This document shows, piece after piece, positions 2,397 to 62,578 of a stretch of DNA of 64,000 nt. The position numbers and the translations under genes were made by a program. The stretch is from a virus, in IMG/VR virus record IMGVR_UViG_3300028733_000003, positions 21,567 through 85,566 of that record. One strand, given 5' to 3'. The stretch's first letter is position 1, and every line of letters starts with the position of its first letter. The notes under the pieces were generated by a model, which made no database searches, was not told the DNA's origin, and saw nothing but the letters and a program-made list of their open reading frames with translations.

Positions 2397-2430
2397 CCTA
2401 CCTACTCCCGATGTTTTGGGAGTAGGTAGG
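2397..2430. terminator. Bidirectional hairpin terminator
   Basis: Two 13-base arms (CCTACCTACTCCC and GGGAGTAGGTAGG) pair perfectly around a short loop. It lies between the convergent genes ending at 2384 and 2438 and can serve both. Confidence 0.85.
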
Positions 2431-5742: not shown

Positions 5743-7863
5743 ATGGCTGAAATTAAGAAAGAAGACATCATTTCAAGAGAGTGCCGGTTTGTTGTGCACT
5801 GTCCGTCCAATGAGTCTTTTAATGATTTGCACCTCATAAAAGAGGTGGTGCATTTGAAAGATGGAACTCAGGTTCCTCGGATCAAACTGCTCCCCAATTT
5901 TAAACGTGACTTCTACGTTACGAAGAAAGGTTTTCGGAAGAGCCATACTCAGAAGAAAGAATGGGAAGCGAAAGAACGTTTGATTCGTTATGAGACGACT
6001 CAAGCGAAGATGCAGTTCAGCATTGCCAGGGCACTTGAGCAGACGGGCTTTAAAGGCCCTATGAGAAAGCTACTCAGAAGTCCGTATGTGTACGGTGCAG
6101 ACATTCTCTCCACCGCGCTGATCAAACACAAGTACATGACTGAGTTTCCTATTCAGCCTACCAAGTATTCCGTGTGTGTGCTTGACTTGGAAACTGATAT
6201 GGTGGACATGACGGGTAAACCTATCATGGGCACTATCTCAATGAAGGACAAAGCTCTCATCGTAGTGCGTGAAGACTTTCTGGCGGGACACGCCAATCCG
6301 ATACAAAGGATTTACGATGCGATAAACAAGCACCTCGGCATGTATGTTGAGGAACGCCAGATGAAGATCGAGATTGAAGTTCGCCCTACCTCTGGCACAC
6401 TTGTTCAAGCACTGATCGAGAAAGCCCATACCTGGATGCCTGACTTCGTGGCTATCTGGAACATGGACTTCGATATACCAAAGATTCTTGATTCTTTGGA
6501 GATGGAAAACATCGATCCTGCTGTGGTGTTCTCAGACCCTTCTATTCCCCCTGAATTCAGGTTCTGCAACTACCGGCCAGGCTCTCCGCAGAAGGTTACA
6601 GCCAGTGGCAAGAAAACGCCTGTAAAGCCCGCTAATCGCTGGCATACGCTATACTGCCCATCGTCCTTCTACGTCATCGATGCAATGTGCACGTATCGCA
6701 TCATTCGTCTCGCATCTCCTGAGGAGCCGAGCTACTCTCTTGATTCTATTCTCAAGAAAGAGCTGACGAATGTAACGAAGCTGAAGTTCGAAGCAGCCAA
6801 GCATTTGGAAGGTACAGCTGAATGGCACACATTCATGCAGCAGAACTATCCATTTGATTACATAGCCTACAACTTGTTTGACTGTGTGTCAATGGAATTG
6901 CTCGATGAGAAGACAACTGATCTGAGTGTTACGCTTCCGATGTTCTCCGCAATGTCGGACTTCAGGCACTTCAAGTCACAACCTCGACGTTTGGTGGATG
7001 CTCTTCACTTTGAAGCCCTGGAGAAGGGTCTAGTGATCGCTACCACGAGTGATGAGATGACTGAAGAGTTTGATACCGAAACTCTCGAGCTCACTGGCTG
7101 GATTCTGACTCTGGCCGCTAACCTCGTGATTAATAACGGCCTGAGACCTTTCAAAGATGTTCCTGAACTGATCACAAATATCAGGGCACATCTTGGGGAT
7201 TAACATCGTGTTCAATGTGTTATTTACAAAGTATCGTATTTTTCACATACACCGCGGTCCCGCTCACGAGTAATCGATGAGCTAGTATCTGTTTAATTGC
7301 GGGGAACTCCTAAAGACTTCACTACCAAACATACAGAGTGATCTGTATGCGGCTGAGCTAACCACTCGGGTATGGTAACAAGGTGAAGTATGTACAATGG
7401 ACAATCGCGCAGCCAAGCCCTCTAATGAGGTGAAGGTTCAACGACTAGGGCATTGCGCCCGTACCGGTCAAGTGACTGGGAAATGGCAGACCCCTACTCT
7501 TAAATGAGAGGGTGAAGATATAGTCTCGACATCCGAGGGAAAGCCCGGAGCTGCAGGTAATGCTGCGGGGAGTGCGTAACGACCACTCCTGAAGATACGC
7601 TAGATGTCAGTGCCAGTTATCCAAACGGAATCTCTGTTAACAATGTCTCACGTGAGACTACTCGCAGAGAGATCATCGACATCATTGGTATCAGTGAAGA
7701 GATCTTCCGTAATCAAAGTCTTAACCTCAATGGCGGTCACACTAACGCTTCTGAGTTCTGTCAGTTCATGTTCAAAGCTCCATCGTTTGAGCAACTGCTT
7801 GCAGCATTTGAGCAAGAAGTCAATGTGACGAACAGCGAACAAGATTTCAAAATAGCTGCTTAA
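5743..7863 (+). CDS. Family B DNA polymerase, N-terminal half (exonuclease and motif A), interrupted by a group I intron
   Basis: Exon 1 is 5743-7201 and exon 2 is 7595-7863; joined they encode 575 residues. I chose the ATG at 5743 because it follows a GAGG box and opens the conserved region. The three proofreading motifs are in order: Exo I DLET at 148-151, Exo II NMDFD at 240-244, Exo III YNLFD at 376-380. Exon 2 opens with DVSASYP, the polymerase motif A (DxxSxYP, one catalytic Asp). Without splicing, translation stops one codon past the splice site. The protein ends about 80 residues after motif A, so motifs B and C are absent; motif C is in the gene at 62583. The enzyme must therefore assemble from two polypeptides. 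A strong terminator follows. Confidence 0.9.
7202..7594 (+). ncRNA. Group I self-splicing intron in the DNA polymerase gene (393 nt, no ORF)
   Basis: Exon joining restores the polymerase frame (T of 7201 plus AT of 7595 makes Tyr). The exon end GGGATT pairs with the guide GGTCCC at 7256-7261, with U.G at the splice site, and the intron ends in G, as group I introns require. Core elements in order: AATTGCGGGGAACTCC at 7295-7310 (P element), GCGCAGCCAAGCC at 7407-7419 (R), GGTTCAACGACTA around 7435-7447, and AAGATATAGTC at 7515-7525 (S/P7). The GGGTATGGTAA box near 7367 resembles the P5/P6 region of IC-type introns. No homing endonuclease is inside. Confidence 0.92.
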
Positions 7864-7876
7864 TAGCAAAAAAAAA

Positions 7877-7928
7877 TAGTCCATTGACGGACTATCTACT
7901 AGACTACCCTGGCGGGTAGTCTAGTAGA
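7877..7928. terminator. Tandem hairpin terminator
   Basis: A small hairpin (TAGTCC/GGACTA, 7877-7894) is followed by a 15-bp perfect hairpin at 7895-7928. It separates the end of the DNA polymerase gene from the convergent small gene at 7940 and can stop transcription from both sides. Confidence 0.85.
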
Positions 7929-12089: not shown

Positions 12090-12467
12090 TTACAGTTTGA
12101 GTGCAGCGCACTGCGCCCGATTGAGCCAGTTGAGATCCTGTTGGTTGAACAAAGAGACAAATTCACCCAGTCTCTTAATGGGAGCCGAAGCTGCTTTCAC
12201 ACGCCTATCACGAGCATCGTAGAAGGTGAGGTAACACAGACTCTCATTTCCCTTGGTGGGCGGGAGGATGTACATCATCAGCTGCGAGACTTTTTTCTGG
12301 CCAGGGACTACGGCATGAATGAAGATCTGTCCATATCCCAGCAAACTCACAGCATCCGTGATGATCTTTTTGATTTGCAAAGGGTCAATCACTGACTTGA
12401 ATTCAGGACAGAACTTCACCAAACGAATCTTGAAGTCCTGGATTGTTTTTTCATCTTCGATCTTCAT
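12090..12467 (-). CDS. Unknown small protein, first gene of the unit
   Basis: 125 residues, ATG at 12467. Helix, then strands (QIFIHAVVPG, LMMYILPP, LCYLTFYDARD), then a terminal helix. It is the first gene downstream of the folded non-coding stretch at 12487-13089, whose terminator-like hairpin ends about 20 bp before this start. No known family. Confidence 0.65.
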   Translation of the reverse strand: MKIEDEKTIQDFKIRLVKFCPEFKSVIDPLQIKKIITDAVSLLGYGQIFIHAVVPGQKKVSQLMMYILPPTKGNESLCYLTFYDARDRRVKAASAPIKRLGEFVSLFNQQDLNWLNRAQCAALKL

Positions 12468-12487
12468 TGAGAGCTTTTCCTATGCGG

Positions 12488-12520
12488 CAAAAAAAGATGA
12501 CTCCTCCACTCGTAGGAGAG
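12488..12520 (-). terminator. Hairpin with U-tract at the end of the structured region
   Basis: CTCCT/AGGAG arms (12501-12505 and 12514-12518) are followed, on the minus strand, by a run of seven to eight T residues. This fits an intrinsic terminator for leftward transcription and would define the 3' end of the candidate RNA. Confidence 0.6.
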
Positions 12521-12766
12521 CCTGGCCTAACCATCGGATGTGCATATCCGATTAGTTTAAGGTGGCTCTAGCTCGAGTGGGGGTAATCCTTTCATCTGCT
12601 AGTGACAGGCCTGCCCTATCTCGGCAGGGGGACTGCTATGCTTGTCCACCTCAGTGGTACGAAGCGACGCATTGTCAGCTGGCTAGGTCGCGACTGCAAC
12701 CTTAATTTTGGCGTTTTTCCACTTTAAGTGGTTATTGATATTGAAGGCAGGCGAGGAGCCTGCATC

Positions 12767-12780
12767 ACCTAATGTTCCAT
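12767..12780 (-). repeat. 14-nt direct repeat, copy 2
   Basis: Minus-strand ATGGAACATTAGGT, identical to the copy at 12900-12913. It is preceded by AAAGGAGG at ribosome-binding distance, so a start-GAA-CAT-stop mini-frame is formally possible. It sits between pairing arms AGGAG and CTCCT. Confidence 0.75.
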
Positions 12781-12899
12781 TCTACGCCGCCTCCTTTGCG
12801 ACTGGCTTTTCGTATTTAAGTGTGAGCTTATTTATAGACGAGTCCGCTTATTCCCGTCTCATTCATCTATGGGCAGTTTGGCTAGGCTCTAGTCAGTGT

Positions 12900-12913
12900 A
12901 CCTAATGTTCCAT
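12900..12913 (-). repeat. 14-nt direct repeat, copy 1
   Basis: Minus-strand ATGGAACATTAGGT, 133 bp from the second copy, between pairing arms AGGCT and AGCCT. The two copies may be equivalent loops of two similar RNA modules. Confidence 0.75.
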
Positions 12914-13013
12914 GATAGCAGCCTCTCGGGCAGTTATGTGAGTCCGACTCTCGTGGCGCGGGCTCTTCGTTGAGTATGCGTTAGGGCGTAGTCATTTTAG
13001 GCCCCTCACATAC

Positions 13014-13089
13014 ATAAAAAGAATGTTAGACCGCATGAGCGAGGATACCCATCGACTTCTAACACCCTACCAAAATCTCCAACTAGGGT
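13014..13089 (-). terminator. Two hairpins with U-tract after the DHH gene
   Basis: On the minus strand ACCCTA/TAGGGT (13064-13089) is followed by TGTTAGA/TCTAACA (13024-13064) and then TTCTTTTT. This fits termination of the leftward transcript of the phosphoesterase gene ending at 13102. Confidence 0.7.
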
Positions 13090-13101
13090 GAGGTTCTCGT
13101 G

Positions 13102-14082
13102 TTACTCACCAGTGCTTTCAGCGACAGCCGGAGATTCAACCACTGTTGCGTACAGCTCCTTGATGAACTCAAGACCTTCATGCAGAGGCAGAGAAGCGCC
13201 ACATGCTTTCTTGTGTCCACCACCACCCAAGGTCTTGGCGTAGGGAAGAACATCCTCACCATCCTTGCGAGAGCGGAAGCTGAACACCACCTTCTCTGCG
13301 ATAACGAAATAGCTCAGTGCGAAGTCGACTCCTTCGCGATATGCCATCTCATTACACGTCAAGGGAATATCGTTCACTACATTGCCAAAGGCAATATTTT
13401 TTCCCCACTTGCGAACGGTGACAGCCTTGTGTTTGGCATAGTTCTGCGCCAGGCGGAACTTGTAGCTGAACACCAGACCAGCATCAGTGGTCTCAAGATA
13501 CTTCTTGAGAGAGTCCATGTCCATCGCTGCGAGCTTTTGCCACAGACGCATGTTGAGCCCATTGGCTGGAGAGCGCATGAACTCATTCATCATCTCGGTG
13601 TGGATGCCGTGTTCTTTTGTCCAGAGATCGAAATCCTGACAGAGCTCCAGATACGGAGGGGTATGTGAGATCGGACTTCCAGGACCGATTGTGAGCCATG
13701 TCAGTACACAACCCGCGTACGTGGTGTCAAAATGAATCTGGACATTTGCACAGTGTCCTTCATTTTGCATGGCACAGACAATTGACACATTCTCCGTTTG
13801 ACCTTCATGGTGATCCACGATGATCAGTTTCTTGCAGATCTTGGAGATTTCCTTGATCTCGTCAAGAGTAGGCATTGCATCGACAAAGTAGACTGTCGTG
13901 TCTTTGTCGATCTTATTGTAGGGGATCTTGTCACCATAGTTGTAACAAATGCTGGAGTACTGGATTTCTTCAGGCGAGTTGCTCATCATTGCCAGATGCT
14001 CAAGTCCCTCGAAGTGTTGGTTCATAACGAAATTGGCGGCGAGGCCGTCAAGGTCGGAATGGTAGAATACAATTGCTTTCAC
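13102..14082 (-). CDS. DHH/DHHA1 family phosphoesterase
   Basis: 326 residues. The DHH metal site is complete: HSDLDG at 8-13, VDAMP at 67-71, DHHEG at 90-94. The DHHA1 substrate domain ends with GGGGHKKACG near 291-300. Known family members hydrolyse short RNA oligonucleotides, pAp or cyclic dinucleotides (NrnA and GdpP types) using two metal ions. There is no PAS or membrane domain, so this is the short stand-alone NrnA-like type. Its role could be nucleotide salvage or removal of signalling nucleotides made by host defence; the sequence does not decide. A probable early promoter lies about 50-75 bp upstream. Confidence 0.88.
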   Translation of the reverse strand: MKAIVFYHSDLDGLAANFVMNQHFEGLEHLAMMSNSPEEIQYSSICYNYGDKIPYNKIDKDTTVYFVDAMPTLDEIKEISKICKKLIIVDHHEGQTENVSIVCAMQNEGHCANVQIHFDTTYAGCVLTWLTIGPGSPISHTPPYLELCQDFDLWTKEHGIHTEMMNEFMRSPANGLNMRLWQKLAAMDMDSLKKYLETTDAGLVFSYKFRLAQNYAKHKAVTVRKWGKNIAFGNVVNDIPLTCNEMAYREGVDFALSYFVIAEKVVFSFRSRKDGEDVLPYAKTLGGGGHKKACGASLPLHEGLEFIKELYATVVESPAVAESTGE

Positions 14083-14169: not shown

Positions 14170-14205
14170 TACACCCACACAGTCATTTAAGGCTGTGTGG
14201 GTGTA
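14170..14205. terminator. Hairpin terminator
   Basis: 13-bp perfect arms (TACACCCACACAG and CTGTGTGGGTGTA). It ends the leftward transcript of the gene stopping at 14213. Confidence 0.85.
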
Positions 14206-15360: not shown

Positions 15361-16647
15361 TCACCCCAAGGTATCGTCGAGATCAAGCTCAGCCACAGTC
15401 ACGCTGTTACCGTGCATCTTCTTCATGAACAAGAGCATGAAGACGTCACCGTACTTTGCCACTGCTGCCGATGCACCTGTAGGGTGTTCTGCCAGACGAG
15501 TACCGACACAGCACTTGCAAAAGTCAGTAGCTTCGAGCTTGCAAAACAACGGAGAACGCACGTGAACGCGTTTACCTACATAGGATTTGATATTCTCCGC
15601 AGTAAGTAAGATGTTCTTGCCTCCTTCGATGACTGTCATACCAATAAGGTTGTCGGTATTTTTATCCGTCACAACACGAGGCACACCGGTCTTCGAACCG
15701 CAGTCATCGATTGTGATTCGGATGTTGGAAGATGCACGAAGCATCCACTTGACCTGGTCACCGCCGAGGGCTGTCTCAGCACCACGGTTATAAGAACCCG
15801 CTCGAAGAATGGACATCATCGTGGGGAACTTATTGATATCCCATCCTTCAGACAAGGATTTGAGAACAGGGTCAGCTTGTGTTGATTCCTTAAAGCCTTC
15901 TTCAGCACCGAGCATATAGAAGAGCTTTTTACGAACGATGTTGTAGGACTTCTTATCGATCAGAAAGCCTGCTGCTGAATCCTTGTCGAGTACTTGCTTA
16001 TCAAGCGCCACAAGCTCAGCATCGATCTTTGCCAGGACTGAAGGATCAGTGAGTTCATCCTTGTGTTCTTTGAGTAGCTTATCCCTGAGCTCTTTCACAA
16101 TAGGTGACAGAGTAATTGCACCTTCACTCACACCAGGAACAAACAGTGAAGTAAAGGTAGTCAGGTAATCAGCAGCCTCAGTGAACTTCAAGTACTCACT
16201 AACAAAGATTGCATTGGGTTTGGGATGGAGTGCACGGTCATCGGTGAGCCTGGGTTCGACGACAGCCTCAATCAAACCAGGTCCAATGTCATCATCGGCA
16301 ATATACGGAATCTTATCTCCGAACGGCCATACAAGAACAATCCAATTGAACACATACTTCTTGTATGTGGTTGTGCTTTTTCCTTCAGTGAGGTTGGGTA
16401 TTTCACCTGCATTGATTTCGAGTGCTTCGCCTATGGAGAACAACGGGTCTTCCGCCTTGGCATCGTCAATGACTTCCCAATCACCAGTTTCATGACTGAA
16501 GAAGAACACCTTACCTGCTTCTCGCTTGATTGAGAATGGTTTGGGTTCTTTAAGGTCTTCAGCCACAGCAAACGCCGAGAACATCCACCAGGCTTGCTTG
16601 TAGAGTTCATTCGTGCATGCTTGAACCACGTAATCTCTTTTTTTCAT
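15361..16647 (-). CDS. RNA polymerase beta-prime C-terminal fragment, probably of the virion RNA polymerase
   Basis: 428 residues. The segment around 276-320 (ILRAGSYNRGAETAL, then TIDDCGS) matches the bridge-helix and DDCGT region of bacterial beta-prime, and 364-400 (RSPLFC, then FCKCC, then the conserved GASAAVAKYG) matches the RSPLTC/CxxCYG/GEAVG block. The N-terminal 200 residues are divergent. A second, different beta-prime C-terminal gene lies at 39174-42938, so the phage has two polymerases; by recalled gene order this one corresponds to phiKZ gp80 of the virion enzyme, injected to transcribe early genes. The assignment to virion rather than non-virion enzyme is inference. Confidence 0.75.
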   Translation of the reverse strand: MKKRDYVVQACTNELYKQAWWMFSAFAVAEDLKEPKPFSIKREAGKVFFFSHETGDWEVIDDAKAEDPLFSIGEALEINAGEIPNLTEGKSTTTYKKYVFNWIVLVWPFGDKIPYIADDDIGPGLIEAVVEPRLTDDRALHPKPNAIFVSEYLKFTEAADYLTTFTSLFVPGVSEGAITLSPIVKELRDKLLKEHKDELTDPSVLAKIDAELVALDKQVLDKDSAAGFLIDKKSYNIVRKKLFYMLGAEEGFKESTQADPVLKSLSEGWDINKFPTMMSILRAGSYNRGAETALGGDQVKWMLRASSNIRITIDDCGSKTGVPRVVTDKNTDNLIGMTVIEGGKNILLTAENIKSYVGKRVHVRSPLFCKLEATDFCKCCVGTRLAEHPTGASAAVAKYGDVFMLLFMKKMHGNSVTVAELDLDDTLG

Positions 16648-20771: not shown

Positions 20772-20795
20772 AAAAAAAAGAACATAGTAGAAGGT

Positions 20796-20830
20796 ATTCA
20801 CTCTAGATGCCTTGGGCATCTAGAGTGAAT
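20796..20830. terminator. Bidirectional hairpin terminator
   Basis: 16-bp perfect arms with a 3-nt loop (ATTCACTCTAGATGCC and its complement), preceded on the plus side by an A-run. It lies between convergent genes at 20771 and 20842. Confidence 0.9.
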
Positions 20831-20841
20831 ATTTGTACGTC

Positions 20842-27927: not shown

Positions 27928-27965
27928 ACCCATACACACAGGCAATCTAGTCTGTGTGTATGGGT
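27928..27965. terminator. Hairpin terminator
   Basis: 14-bp perfect arms (ACCCATACACACAG and complement) between the genes at 27549 and 27976. Confidence 0.85.
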
Positions 27966-34216: not shown

Positions 34217-34250
34217 CAGACTACAGAGGGCATCTGCCCTCTGTAGTCTG
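34217..34250. terminator. Hairpin terminator
   Basis: 16-bp perfect arms (CAGACTACAGAGGGCA and complement), 2-nt loop, after the stop of the gene at 34259. Confidence 0.88.
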
Positions 34251-37538: not shown

Positions 37539-37582
37539 ATATAGCCTACCAGGGATGCGAAAGCATCCCTGGTAGGCTATAT
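37539..37582. terminator. 20-bp hairpin terminator
   Basis: 20-bp perfect arms with a GAAA loop, starting at the last base of the helicase stop. Among the strongest hairpins in the window; it closes the conserved replication and transcription block. Confidence 0.92.
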
Positions 37583-39173: not shown

Positions 39174-42100
39174 CTACTGATGCAGATTGTAAATCACTTC
39201 TCTTGGCATCAGCAATGCATCGTAAGGGTGATCGGGTCGATCAGTCACCAGATATGTCTGCGGTGACAAAATTACCTCACGATGCTGTTGGAACGCAAAG
39301 CTGGCAGACAGACTGCGCATGGCCATGATACGACGCATCACACCAAACCCCCGTTTACCATCCGGCTTGGGTAGTGCATAATTGTTGTCTTCAGCAGACA
39401 CAATCATCACACCATACAGAATGGCTTCGAGGATGGACAGATGGATGTCGAGCTTCTCATTGACCAGATCATGGAAGTCACGCAAAAGCATCGTCGGAGA
39501 CGTGAACTTGTCACGCTTCTTCAATTCAGTTACGCGAGACTCGATCATCGCGGCAATATCCTAATATGTTCAGGTAGTTCGTTAAGCTACCCCCGCACCT
39601 TTACGTGCAGCTATATGTTTCCATATACGTACAGATCATATCACCATCTCTAATGACACTTTCGTCAAGAAGATGCTTCCCATTTCGAACCCCACTAGGG
39701 GTCCTACACCGTAGCAAGCGGTTGATCGTTGAACGTTCTTCCTATCTTGTCTCACGACAATACTTAGAAGCTTCGCTGCTGATTTTCCCTATTCCATTGT
39801 TTTCAAGCATTCACGTTTATCTTTTCAGATTACGCAGTAGCCAATGGACCTAACGGGACGTCCCAGCAATTAAGGAAGAAACATTTAGCCATCGCTGACT
39901 AAACGCGCTTTGTTTATAGTGTCAACACTTCCTCAAACACCCAGTCACCCAATTGCAAGTGGTTTTCCATCTTGTTTCTGACCACGAAATTGGATGCTTT
40001 GAATGTGGCACATACATCTTTCATAGTGGGAAAATCTATTTCCTCACCAGTTACCACATTCTTAGCCCTGATATGTTTCGGGGCATTAGGGTGTCTCTTA
40101 TAACTCGTTTCCCATGGTTCGTTTGTTTTGTATCTGAAAACATAACCCTTACACTCATACTTCTCAGGATTATTGACAGCTTTATGAATGGTGCTAAATC
40201 CCAGGTTTAGTTTCCTAGAAAGCTCCCGTACTGAATTTGCTTCGGTTACTATCCCTGATGCTGTATTGAGGGCTTGTACTTCTCCTCCAGCAAAGTTATC
40301 GACAACGTCGATCCTCATATCGGGATATTTCACTTTAGCAACTTCCACTATCTTGTTCACATTGTAACTAATGTTCCAGATCCGCAAACGCTTCATCAGC
40401 TCTGGAATTGTGTACAAAATTTCTATGGAATTATCAGGGTGAGTCAGAGTGATGGTATACTTGCTCTTCCTTATCAAGGCATCCTCATCAGACATCCATG
40501 GTGAATTGTCTTCGAGTTCTTTAATTTCATACCGGTCTCTAACTACCGTAGTTCGCTTTCTATTTGCTTTATCCTTGAACCTAGTGTTCTCATGCAACCC
40601 AATTGCTAGACAAACATGCTTAAAAGAGTCATAGGTCGTAACAACAGATGTTTTTATATCCCGGACTTTGTACTTCTTACCACCGTGATGCAAACCTGTT
40701 CGATATGCGTGTTGGATATTTTCTTTAAAGGAACACCATTCTAAGTTACTAGCATGGCAGTTATACTTATCGCCATCCATGTGATTTACCATGGGGTGAG
40801 CGAAATAGTCCCTATTATCTTTCCACGCCATCGCAACCATGCGGTGGATAAAAATCTTTTTGAAAAAACCTCTGTCGGGATCATATATCGAAATAGCCGG
40901 ATAATCATTGACTAGGACGATATTGGTCATCTCAGCACCACTCTCAACTTCAAGAACTTTGCCATCGATACTAACGGCATAATCCGTGTAATTGGGAACT
41001 ACTCTGTACTCACCTTTAACCACTACCGGCTCAGCAAAAACCATCACTTTGCCACTATTGGATTTTGTGAAAACAGGGTTGCAATCTACAAAACTAATAG
41101 CCTTGTAGTCTTGCGGTAGCCTCACCTCAAAGTGAGTTATGAGAGATAACCAAAACAAATCTACTGTTTCAACTTGACCGTACAAGTTTATCGTTATTTG
41201 GTTGTTAGCTATCGGTAAATCACAAACGGAACCATTTAGTTTACGAATCTCAGAATTCAGAGAAAGGATATAGTCATGATTACCAGGGATTTTTTTAAAC
41301 ATGCTACGATCTCAAGGATATTATCATACTATATCTGATCACTATGGAAACTTAGGCAGTTTCCACAAAACGGCTGTGATCCCCCATGTTGTATTGCTGC
41401 ATGGGAAGAGTAAGGAATGGCTTGTTGAAGTTCCACCCACTCAAGTCAACCAGATAGTGACCATACTCATTCGTCGTAAAACGTGCAGTCTTGATGTACT
41501 CGAGAGCATCAAATGACAAAGATGCAGTGCGGTTCTCGAACTTAACCGTAATCTCCTCACTGGTCTCGATCTTTCCATTGACGGTGTGCACACCGATCGA
41601 ATTGATGGCGCTCACGCGATAGATGTCAAGATCTCTGACATTGTCAATCTCGAATATGTCCGGAAGATTAGCCACTTCTTCCTTATCGAACGCGATGTGT
41701 GTTTTTCCTTTCTGTTTGATCAGGATATATGAGAGCCCATCCTTGGATGCGTCGATGAATCGCTTATGACGTGGTTCAATCTCCAGCTTCTTGATGACGG
41801 TACTGCCATCGAGGTGCTTGGTGGAAAGCACATTCTGCGATGCTTTCGCACACATTGAGATCGTGCATTGGTTGCCCAGGTTGTTGGTCTCATAGATACC
41901 CATGGCCAATTCACCGAAACATACCTCACACACACCGTCGGGATCATCGTGTTGGCACCCCATCGTGCTGCGGAACTTCAGGGTCTTACCGACGAGATGC
42001 GTGTCCTGAACTCGAACCACAGCCAACATCCCGGATTCTTCATCGATCACGTACCACTTGCCGATCAGGTGCTTGAAGTTACCTTGGGTAACACCCCACT

Positions 42101-55758: not shown

Positions 55759-57639
55759 TTAACGCCCACGTTCAAACCACCTGGCAAGAGTGGCTGCAAA
55801 CGGTTTGGGAGGCGATATGGACCGACTCAATTGCCTGGGTGCATCAACCGAGATGACGTTGCGGTGAGGCAGCATCGACATCATCTCTTTCGTGGTATAC
55901 CTATCGAGCGTCATCATGGCTACCATCTGGTCTCCATCGAACCCAATGTCCAGTTAAGCCGCTCATCCCTATTCGGGATTACCCTCTTAACCCGGTGCGA
56001 TTCCTGGCACCCGCCCATGGCTTTCCCATGGGGGCAGATCATATCATCATCCCCTCACAATGAGGGGAGGCTTCTACTTGGCAGACGCTGTCCGCTACTC
56101 CCCGCTACGGGATGATCGTTGAACCTTACTCATATTTCGCTATCTCAGCGATACTTAGAGTCTTGGCTGCGTGATTACCCAATTCCTACCCTTTTTACCA
56201 TACCCAGCTAGTTACCCTGGCCACTTACAAGTTTCCAATGTAAGTTTGGTAGATAGGACTCTAAGGATGTCCCCGCAATTCAAAAGCATTCAATCCACCA
56301 TTACTGATAGATAGGACCTATATTTAAGATGTCGATCAGCGCCATACTGCTCTACGTTGAGGATCGAGATTGACATGGTTTTGTCTTCCAGGTCATCCTT
56401 GATCCCGGTGATGCGCACCAGCTGAATACTGCCTAAACCCAGAGTCGGATTGCGCTGCATGATCACCGGTATGCCCTTATGCTTATCGGGATCATCCGGA
56501 TACAGATACGAGCAATCAGACTCCTCGATCATCTCATCGAACAGACTCTTGACTTTCTCGATCACTGCCTTATCGGTAGTTCCGACGGCACTGTAGAGCA
56601 GCCCCAGTAGATCATTCGGGTTATACCCGCGTCTGGTGAGCTTGCTGGCCAGGTGAGTGCGCAGCAGCCCAATCCCCACACCCCATGGAATATGTATCTC
56701 GTCATACTGGTGAGGACCAGTGAGAGAGGAGATCACACACCGAGCTGAGAAGTCAGTTCTGCCACCATAAACTTGCTTGCGAAAGATGCCCTCTTTCGGA
56801 GCAAAAAGCTTGTCGTACACTCCCTCGTAGTACTGAGAGAGCATGTCGATCGACTTGATCGTGCGCTCTTCACGCTGTCGCTGACTGAGCACACACGTCG
56901 GAGTATCGATACCAATCATCCCGGTAATGGCATCGATTGCAACGAACATCGTATTGTCGAGAAAACGACCCAGGTTGGTGTTCTCGATCACCAACATTGT
57001 TCTATTCACCAGCGGGATTTGCTGGCTGAAAACCTTATTTCGATTCTCCTGGATCAGTTGATAGAGAGGATCAATCTTGTTGCGTTTCTTGATGGTCTTC
57101 AGATTGAAGAAGAACTCCATATAGGAATCGAAGTTCTCCACGAAGTTGTTGTAACCGCGCTTGAGTTTTGCATCCAGTATGGATTGCCAGTAAACCGGCA
57201 GATTCCCATCAGGAACATAGCTGGGCATCGTGATCCAGTGCAGCAAGGAAAAGCCCGCGCCTTTCTTGAAACGCCCCACCAACATCGACCAGATCAGTGG
57301 ATTGATCATCGCAGTCACGCCACGCGGAGACCTGAGCCAGATGCGAGGTTGTAGATCATCGGTAGATGACTCAACAGTCGTGTGACACACCGGACACTTA
57401 ACACCGATATTGCTACCGGATGTCTTATCTCCGCGACTGTTAGTATATCCAGTCAGTCTGCCGCACTGACAAGTGGGTGTGTTGGACAAACATTCGCTAC
57501 CATCGTGCTGGGTGAATACCTCCTTACGGAATGCTTCTTTTGCTGCTGGAGATTCGTCCACGTCATTGACATACTGAGGGTCTTTTACGAACCTCAGAAA
57601 GTCATCATCGTAGTCTGCTACTTCTCCATAAATACCCAT
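55759..57639 (-). CDS. RNA polymerase beta-prime N-terminal subunit (non-virion enzyme), interrupted by a group I intron at the catalytic site
   Basis: Exon 1 is 57639-56335 and exon 2 is 55941-55759; joined they encode 495 residues. Start: ATG at 57639 (GGGAGAG box). A Cys-rich zinc site (C50, C57, C59, C82, C85), GRTDFSARCVISSL (compare GKRVDYSGRSVI) and RNPTLGLGSIQ (compare NRPPTLHRLGIQ) mark beta-prime. Exon 1 ends GAD and exon 2 begins FDGDQM, so splicing makes GADFDGDQM (433-441), the magnesium-binding catalytic motif. Without splicing the enzyme has no active site. It corresponds to phiKZ gp55, next to the chimallin gene. Confidence 0.92.
55942..56334 (-). ncRNA. Group I intron within the catalytic motif codons of RNA polymerase beta-prime (393 nt, no ORF)
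   Basis: Core elements on the minus strand: AATTGCGGGGACATCC at 56265-56280, CACGCAGCCAAGAC at 56160-56173, GTTCAACGATCA at 56113-56124 and ATGATATGATCT at 56037-56048. All match those of the intron at 7202-7594; also GGGTATGGTAA is present. Exact length is the same, 393 nt. The exon end CTGAT can pair with ATCAG inside the intron (P1), though the terminal pair is U-A. The intron ends in G and the frame is restored exactly. Confidence 0.9.
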
Positions 57640-62538: not shown

Positions 62539-62578
62539 CCTCTACTACCTCTAGGCGCCAGCCTAGAGGTAGTAGAGG
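62539..62578. terminator. Bidirectional 18-bp hairpin terminator
   Basis: 18-bp perfect arms (CCTCTACTACCTCTAGGC and complement) with a 4-nt loop between convergent genes at 62524 and 62583. Confidence 0.9.

What the first reader, a model, noticed from the sequence alone, without database searches (positions are those of the whole stretch)
12487..13020. About 530-nt densely folded non-coding region: candidate new large structured RNA
Reading frames are absent, yet the leftward strand shows several perfect hairpins, two long-range stems of 6-8 bp enclosing 70-100 nt, a duplicated 14-nt element and a terminator at its end. It is too long and too ordered for a spacer in a genome packed this tightly. 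Size recalls the ornate phage RNAs (GOLLD, ROOL), but I see no feature that identifies it as one of them.
Basis: inference. Interest (0 to 1): 0.75.

Follow-up and report, generated by a model that had tools for sequence, protein, structure and literature searches.

The report
Orphan structured-RNA candidate in jumbo phage
A 530-base stretch of a giant bacterial virus makes no protein and ends like a self-contained RNA gene; it is a fair but unproven candidate for a new structured RNA, because no relative could be found to test whether its shape is conserved.

Summary
The stretch is real: the 634-nt gap 12468-13101 of this phiKZ-like jumbo-phage fragment is the largest non-intron gap in the window, scores as non-coding in all frames, and on the minus strand is bracketed by two terminator-like hairpins. 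The short hairpins, nested stems, duplicated 14-mer and 3' T-run are all present. But "densely folded" is overstated: its folding z-score (-2.95) lies within 1 sd of ordinary 534-nt tiles of the same genome (mean -2.05, sd 1.75). Only the last ~110 nt is locally exceptional (z -5.1).

Rfam gives nothing credible even at lax thresholds. No relative turned up in GenBank phages, in 17 genomes or records searched, or by covariance model, so compensatory change could not be tested. Verdict: plausible orphan, free-standing structured RNA (about 0.5); membership in any ornate family not met; decayed or neutral spacer not excluded.

Comparing long gaps in relatives exposed a different, conserved ~500-560-nt RNA ("family X": Burkholderia phages FLC9 and FLC8 and eight other records), absent from Rfam, with covarying stems and a hammerhead-like CUGANGAG...CGAAA core. 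The window RNA is not a member, but this shows the clade does encode such RNAs.

The parts
13102..14082 (-). upstream gene, DHH phosphoesterase-like
   Evidence: phrog_4771 E 1.4e-36; Pfam DHH and DHHA1 below cut-off
13016..13064 (-). terminator-like hairpin TGTTAGA...TCTAACA followed by TTCTTTTT, between the DHH gene and the candidate RNA
   Evidence: outer stem pair probability 0.92; sequence
12487..13016 (-). candidate structured RNA; 5' end inferred just after the upstream T-run, 3' end at the T7 run
   Evidence: non-coding; MFE -168.6, z -2.95; transcription not shown
12974..13013 (-). first hairpin GTATGTG/CGCATAC with inner GGGGC/GCCCT
   Evidence: pair probability 0.94-0.96
12900..12913 (-). 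14-nt repeat ATGGAACATTAGGT, copy 1, preceded by GAGGCTGCTATC
12767..12780 (-). 14-nt repeat, copy 2, preceded by GGAGGCGGCGTAGA
12631..12923 (-). possible long-range stem GGCTGCTAT/ATAGCAGTC (9 bp) enclosing both 14-nt repeats
   Evidence: mean pair probability 0.71; no comparative support
12747..12763 (-). hairpin GCAGGC/GCCTGC
   Evidence: pair probability 0.93
12719..12731 (-). hairpin CCACT/AGTGG
   Evidence: pair probability 0.93
12685..12702 (-). hairpin AGGTTGC/GCGACCT
   Evidence: pair probability 0.98
12489..12599 (-). 3' domain: about 105-nt long hairpin (45 bp in the model fold) ending in T7; the only locally exceptional fold
   Evidence: 110-nt windows z -4.1 to -5.1 against genome mean -0.7; model R2
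12090..12467 (-). downstream orphan gene, 125 aa, start codon 21 nt after the T-run
   Evidence: no Pfam or PHROG hit; coding score 0.34

Best explanation
A free-standing, phage-encoded structured non-coding RNA of about 525 nt, transcribed leftward from just after the DHH-gene hairpin (about 13016) and ended by the T7 run at 12495-12489. It would act as a folded RNA: a stable 3' hairpin domain protects and terminates it, and two copies of a 14-nt element held in stem-junction contexts serve as a repeated binding or assembly site. Shown: non-coding composition, hairpins, duplicated motif, terminator-like ends. Inferred: transcription, promoter, the global fold and any function.
For: Largest non-intron gap of the window; non-coding; terminator-like structures at both ends; 3' domain z -5.1; 14-mer repeat in 3/300 shuffles, each copy just 3' of a predicted helix strand; unpaired A 0.48 against 0.45 sd 0.013 in shuffles; sister phages carry another ~500-560-nt conserved RNA outside Rfam.
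Against: Overall fold energy is ordinary for this genome; middle 240 nt at chance locally; no homologue anywhere searched, hence no covariation; no promoter signal (TATG, the phiKZ nvRNAP element, is not enriched upstream of genes here: 13 sense, 18 antisense).
Confidence: 0.5

Rival explanations
1. Neutral or decayed intergenic DNA: a gene remnant or unselected spacer with a terminator at each end.
For: Fold energy within the genome's normal range; middle part unstructured above chance; this genome is full of long intergenic hairpins; no conservation found.
Against: No trace of a protein family in six frames; duplicated 14-mer rarer than chance; largest non-intron gap in a compact genome.
Confidence: 0.27
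2. Long 5' leader of the 12467-9591 gene run, with the 3' domain acting as a regulated terminator (attenuator); the 14-mer copies could then be three-codon reading frames (Met-Glu-His-stop) behind Shine-Dalgarno-like sequences.
For: T7 run ends 21 nt before the start codon; an alternative 13-of-15 helix AGAGCCTAGCCAAAC/GTTAGGCCAGGCTCT competes for a strand of the 3' domain; GGAGG and GAGAGG lie 8-9 nt upstream of both ATGs.
Against: Forcing the alternative helix costs about 13 kcal/mol; inverted matches that good occur in 4 of 100 shuffles; 500 nt is long for a leader.
Confidence: 0.17
3. A DNA-level element such as an origin or a protein-binding region; the 14-mer pair would be binding sites.
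For: Exact duplication; GGAACATTAG does recur as clustered intergenic repeats in unrelated phages.
Against: Only two copies; no further repeats; no GC-skew switch there.
Confidence: 0.06

Closest known systems
ROOL RNA
   Same: Large, multi-hairpin, unknown-function RNA of phages and prophages; similar size class (size partly from own knowledge)
   Different: No sequence or covariance match; ROOL is often near tRNA islands (PMC12286853) whereas no tRNA was found in the window or the rest of the record
GOLLD RNA
   Same: Large phage non-coding RNA with a well-structured 3' region
   Different: Many members exceed 800 nt (PMC12286853); no Rfam match; no tRNAs nearby
Family X
   Same: About 500-560 nt, non-coding, phiKZ-like jumbo phages; T-run terminator in G006 and G012; absent from Rfam
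   Different: No sequence or covariance match to the window RNA; no CUGANGA core in the window RNA

Membership tests
GOLLD / ROOL / HEARO / any Rfam 15 family | covariance-model match | tested here: not met
   No hit at gathering or at E<=1; at E<=10 only MEG8_3, 12.3 bits against a gathering score of 40
ROOL / GOLLD | often next to a phage tRNA island | tested here: not met
   No tRNA in the window or in the remaining part of the 85.6-kb record
ROOL / GOLLD | covarying ornate secondary structure | not testable with these tools
   No homologue found
ROOL / GOLLD | homo-oligomeric RNA cage | not testable with these tools
   needs cryo-EM or native gels
Group I intron | RF00028 match | tested here: not met
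   Found at 7213, 39611 and 56014 but not here
Family X | match to models R1 (3' domain) and R3 (5' block) | tested here: not met
   Best 4.1 bits (E 0.12, only the two ends of the model matched) and 1.7 bits (opposite strand), filters off
tRNA / tmRNA array | ARAGORN or Rfam hit | tested here: not met

The most novel reading that the evidence does not exclude
The first seen member of a new large structured RNA family of jumbo phages, with two copies of one junction motif (ATGGAACATTAGGT) as its repeated functional site, in a clade that carries at least one other unrelated large RNA (family X).
Probability: 0.33. Interest if true: 0.65.

Novelty: new member of a known kind. Interest (0 to 1): 0.42.

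Why it matters
Large phage RNAs such as GOLLD and ROOL have unknown functions, and few families are known. If the window RNA is real, phiKZ-like phages of Burkholderiaceae would carry more than one unrelated large RNA. Family X, found on the way, makes that question testable now: it is in sequenced lab-isolated phages (FLC9, FLC8) and conserved across at least ten records.

Tried and rejected
phiKZ TATG promoter just before the first hairpin: rejected as evidence, TATG is not enriched upstream of genes. Pair of GGAACATTAG as a probe in viral contigs: 83 stretches, nearly all protein repeats or unrelated clustered intergenic repeats. DHH, 255-aa and 125-aa neighbour proteins as probes: no relatives in the collection scanned. 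L121 577-nt gap beside a DHH homologue: AT-rich, unrelated. Family X homology of the window RNA: rejected. Three-way alignment with family X is forced and carries no weight. Alternative codes with TAG and TGA read as residues: frames only extend neighbouring coding strands. Antiterminator helix: 13 kcal/mol worse.

Full report
Setting. The window is part of an 85.6-kb IMG/VR record. It encodes several RNA polymerase beta-type subunits and a DNA polymerase that match jumbo-phage PHROGs. The nearest relatives by the RNA polymerase subunit at 15361-16647 are 41-46% identical: Burkholderia phage FLC9, IMG/VR contigs, and contigs in Caballeronia and Paraburkholderia assemblies. So it is a phiKZ-like phage fragment, probably of Burkholderiaceae (inference), and no close relative was available.

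The observation. The gap 12468-13101 lies between a DHH phosphoesterase-like gene and a 125-aa orphan, both on the minus strand. Codon scores in all six frames resemble a group I intron rather than the genes tested, and six-frame translations hit no PHROG. A terminator-like hairpin also follows the DHH gene (13064-13024, then TTCTTTTT), so the candidate is bracketed.

Is it more than chance? The minus strand folds at z -2.95 and the plus strand at -2.5. But 534-nt tiles of the same genome average -2.05 with sd 1.75, and many reach -4 to -6.5 (140 of 238 planned tiles finished, 14 shuffles each and a fixed sd of 6.5, so rough). This genome has many 13-20-bp intergenic hairpins. In 110-nt windows only the 3' domain stands out (z -5.1); the middle, window starts 12731-12911, sits at chance. 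The 14-mer repeat is the other feature above chance: 3 of 300 shuffles reach it. Both copies directly follow a predicted helix strand (GGCTGCTAT; GGCGT with ACGCC). Unpaired A is 0.48 against 0.45 sd 0.013 in mononucleotide shuffles, a weak sign.

Is it known? Rfam has no match even at E<=1; at E<=10 only a meaningless 12-bit hit. ARAGORN finds no tRNA. DNA comparison with 50,697 phage records, relative genomes and a covariance model of the 3' domain over 17 genomes and records finds only itself. Compensatory change, the decisive test, therefore could not be applied.

What it most likely is. I favour a free-standing structured RNA (0.5), over neutral or decayed spacer (0.27), an attenuator-type leader of the downstream genes (0.17), or a DNA-level element (0.06). 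The leader reading rests on the T-run lying 21 nt before the next start codon; the competing helix that could undo the 3' domain is 13 kcal/mol worse. Transcription itself is not shown by anything here.

A different RNA found on the way ("family X"). Looking for long ORF-poor gaps in relatives, I found a ~560-nt region conserved at about 72% between two jumbo phages, G006 (L164:3655-4222) and G012 (L178:8615-9190, minus), in the same gene context, before 2OG-Fe(II) oxygenase genes. RNAalifold pairs 125 positions, 33 with changes on both sides (two sequences and a structure predicted from them, so suggestive only). A model of its 3' domain found a third member in a Caballeronia arationis assembly at E 4e-22, followed there by a GIY-YIG/NUMOD3 endonuclease gene. 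A model of its 5' block then found one place each in G001, G002 and G003 (E about 1e-7), G014 (4e-8), G008 (7e-4), FLC9 (0.005) and FLC8 (1.4e-4), not in phiKZ or six other jumbo phages (the second search used stricter filters). A weaker candidate in G009 (0.025) was not pursued. In FLC9 it fills the unannotated gap 137441-137947, plus a little of gp132 and gp133 as annotated. The weak model hits gain support because the later motifs AAGTTGT (nine of nine aligned members) and GCAGCC (most) recur in the same order. In the 5' block two hairpins covary across nine members. Rfam at E<=1 gives nothing for the members scanned.

All nine aligned members keep TCTGA-N-GAG ... CGAAA; FLC8 keeps CTGAAGA ... 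GCGAAA. This is the hammerhead ribozyme core, with variation only at N7 in the first motif (hammerhead consensus from own knowledge). In FLC9, G001, G002 and G003, flanking stems I (GCUCU/AGAGC) and III and a CUC or CUA cleavage triplet also fit, but about 90 nt with two or more hairpins replace stem II, and the other members do not fit the same scan. Known hammerhead models in Rfam do not hit. I treat this as a lead, not a classification.

Bearing on the finding. The window RNA matches neither model of family X and lacks the core motif, so it is not a member. Family X only shows that phages of this clade do carry large non-coding RNAs unknown to Rfam, which raises the prior for the window candidate. 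About 85 kb of a genome whose relatives span roughly 210-320 kb is held, so the window phage may have its own family X copy elsewhere.

Noticed in passing
L164:3655-4222 (+), L178:8615-9190 (-), L213:1270-1930 (+), L191:4330-4960 (-, FLC9 137330-137960), L221, L222, L223, L220, L224, L234 (matches at about 1500): Family X: conserved ~500-560-nt non-coding RNA, one confident copy per genome, in at least ten Burkholderiaceae-type jumbo-phage records or contigs; not in Rfam; covarying hairpins; hammerhead-like CUGANGAG...CGAAA core, with stems I and III fitting in four members.
   Followed up: partly
L015:13851-15084, L140:2889-4176, L162:14181-15326: In three relatives a ~1.2-kb ORF-less array with a period of about 37 nt: GTGTATCA, about 10 variable bases, TCACCCA, about 10 variable bases. 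No Rfam hit for L015.
   Followed up: no
L023:556-987 and L184:13752-14281 (reverse): A second ORF-less stretch conserved between two relatives (74% over 295 nt), with GC-rich hairpins.
   Followed up: no
window 7213-7541 (+), 39611-39928 (-), 56014-56347 (-): Three group I introns next to the DNA polymerase gene and RNA polymerase subunit genes; the 39611 one abuts an HNH endonuclease gene at 39914-41302.
   Followed up: no
window 2397-2430, 7895-7928, 14170-14205, 20792-20834, 27928-27965, 34217-34250, 37539-37582, 62539-62578 and others: Many intergenic hairpins of 13-20 near-perfect pairs, several without a T-run on either side.
   Followed up: no
L044:5159-5450, L049:3290-3970, L048:1100-1270, L072:1296-1448: Unrelated phage contigs with clustered GGAACATTA repeats around AT-rich intergenic DNA, iteron-like.
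   Followed up: no
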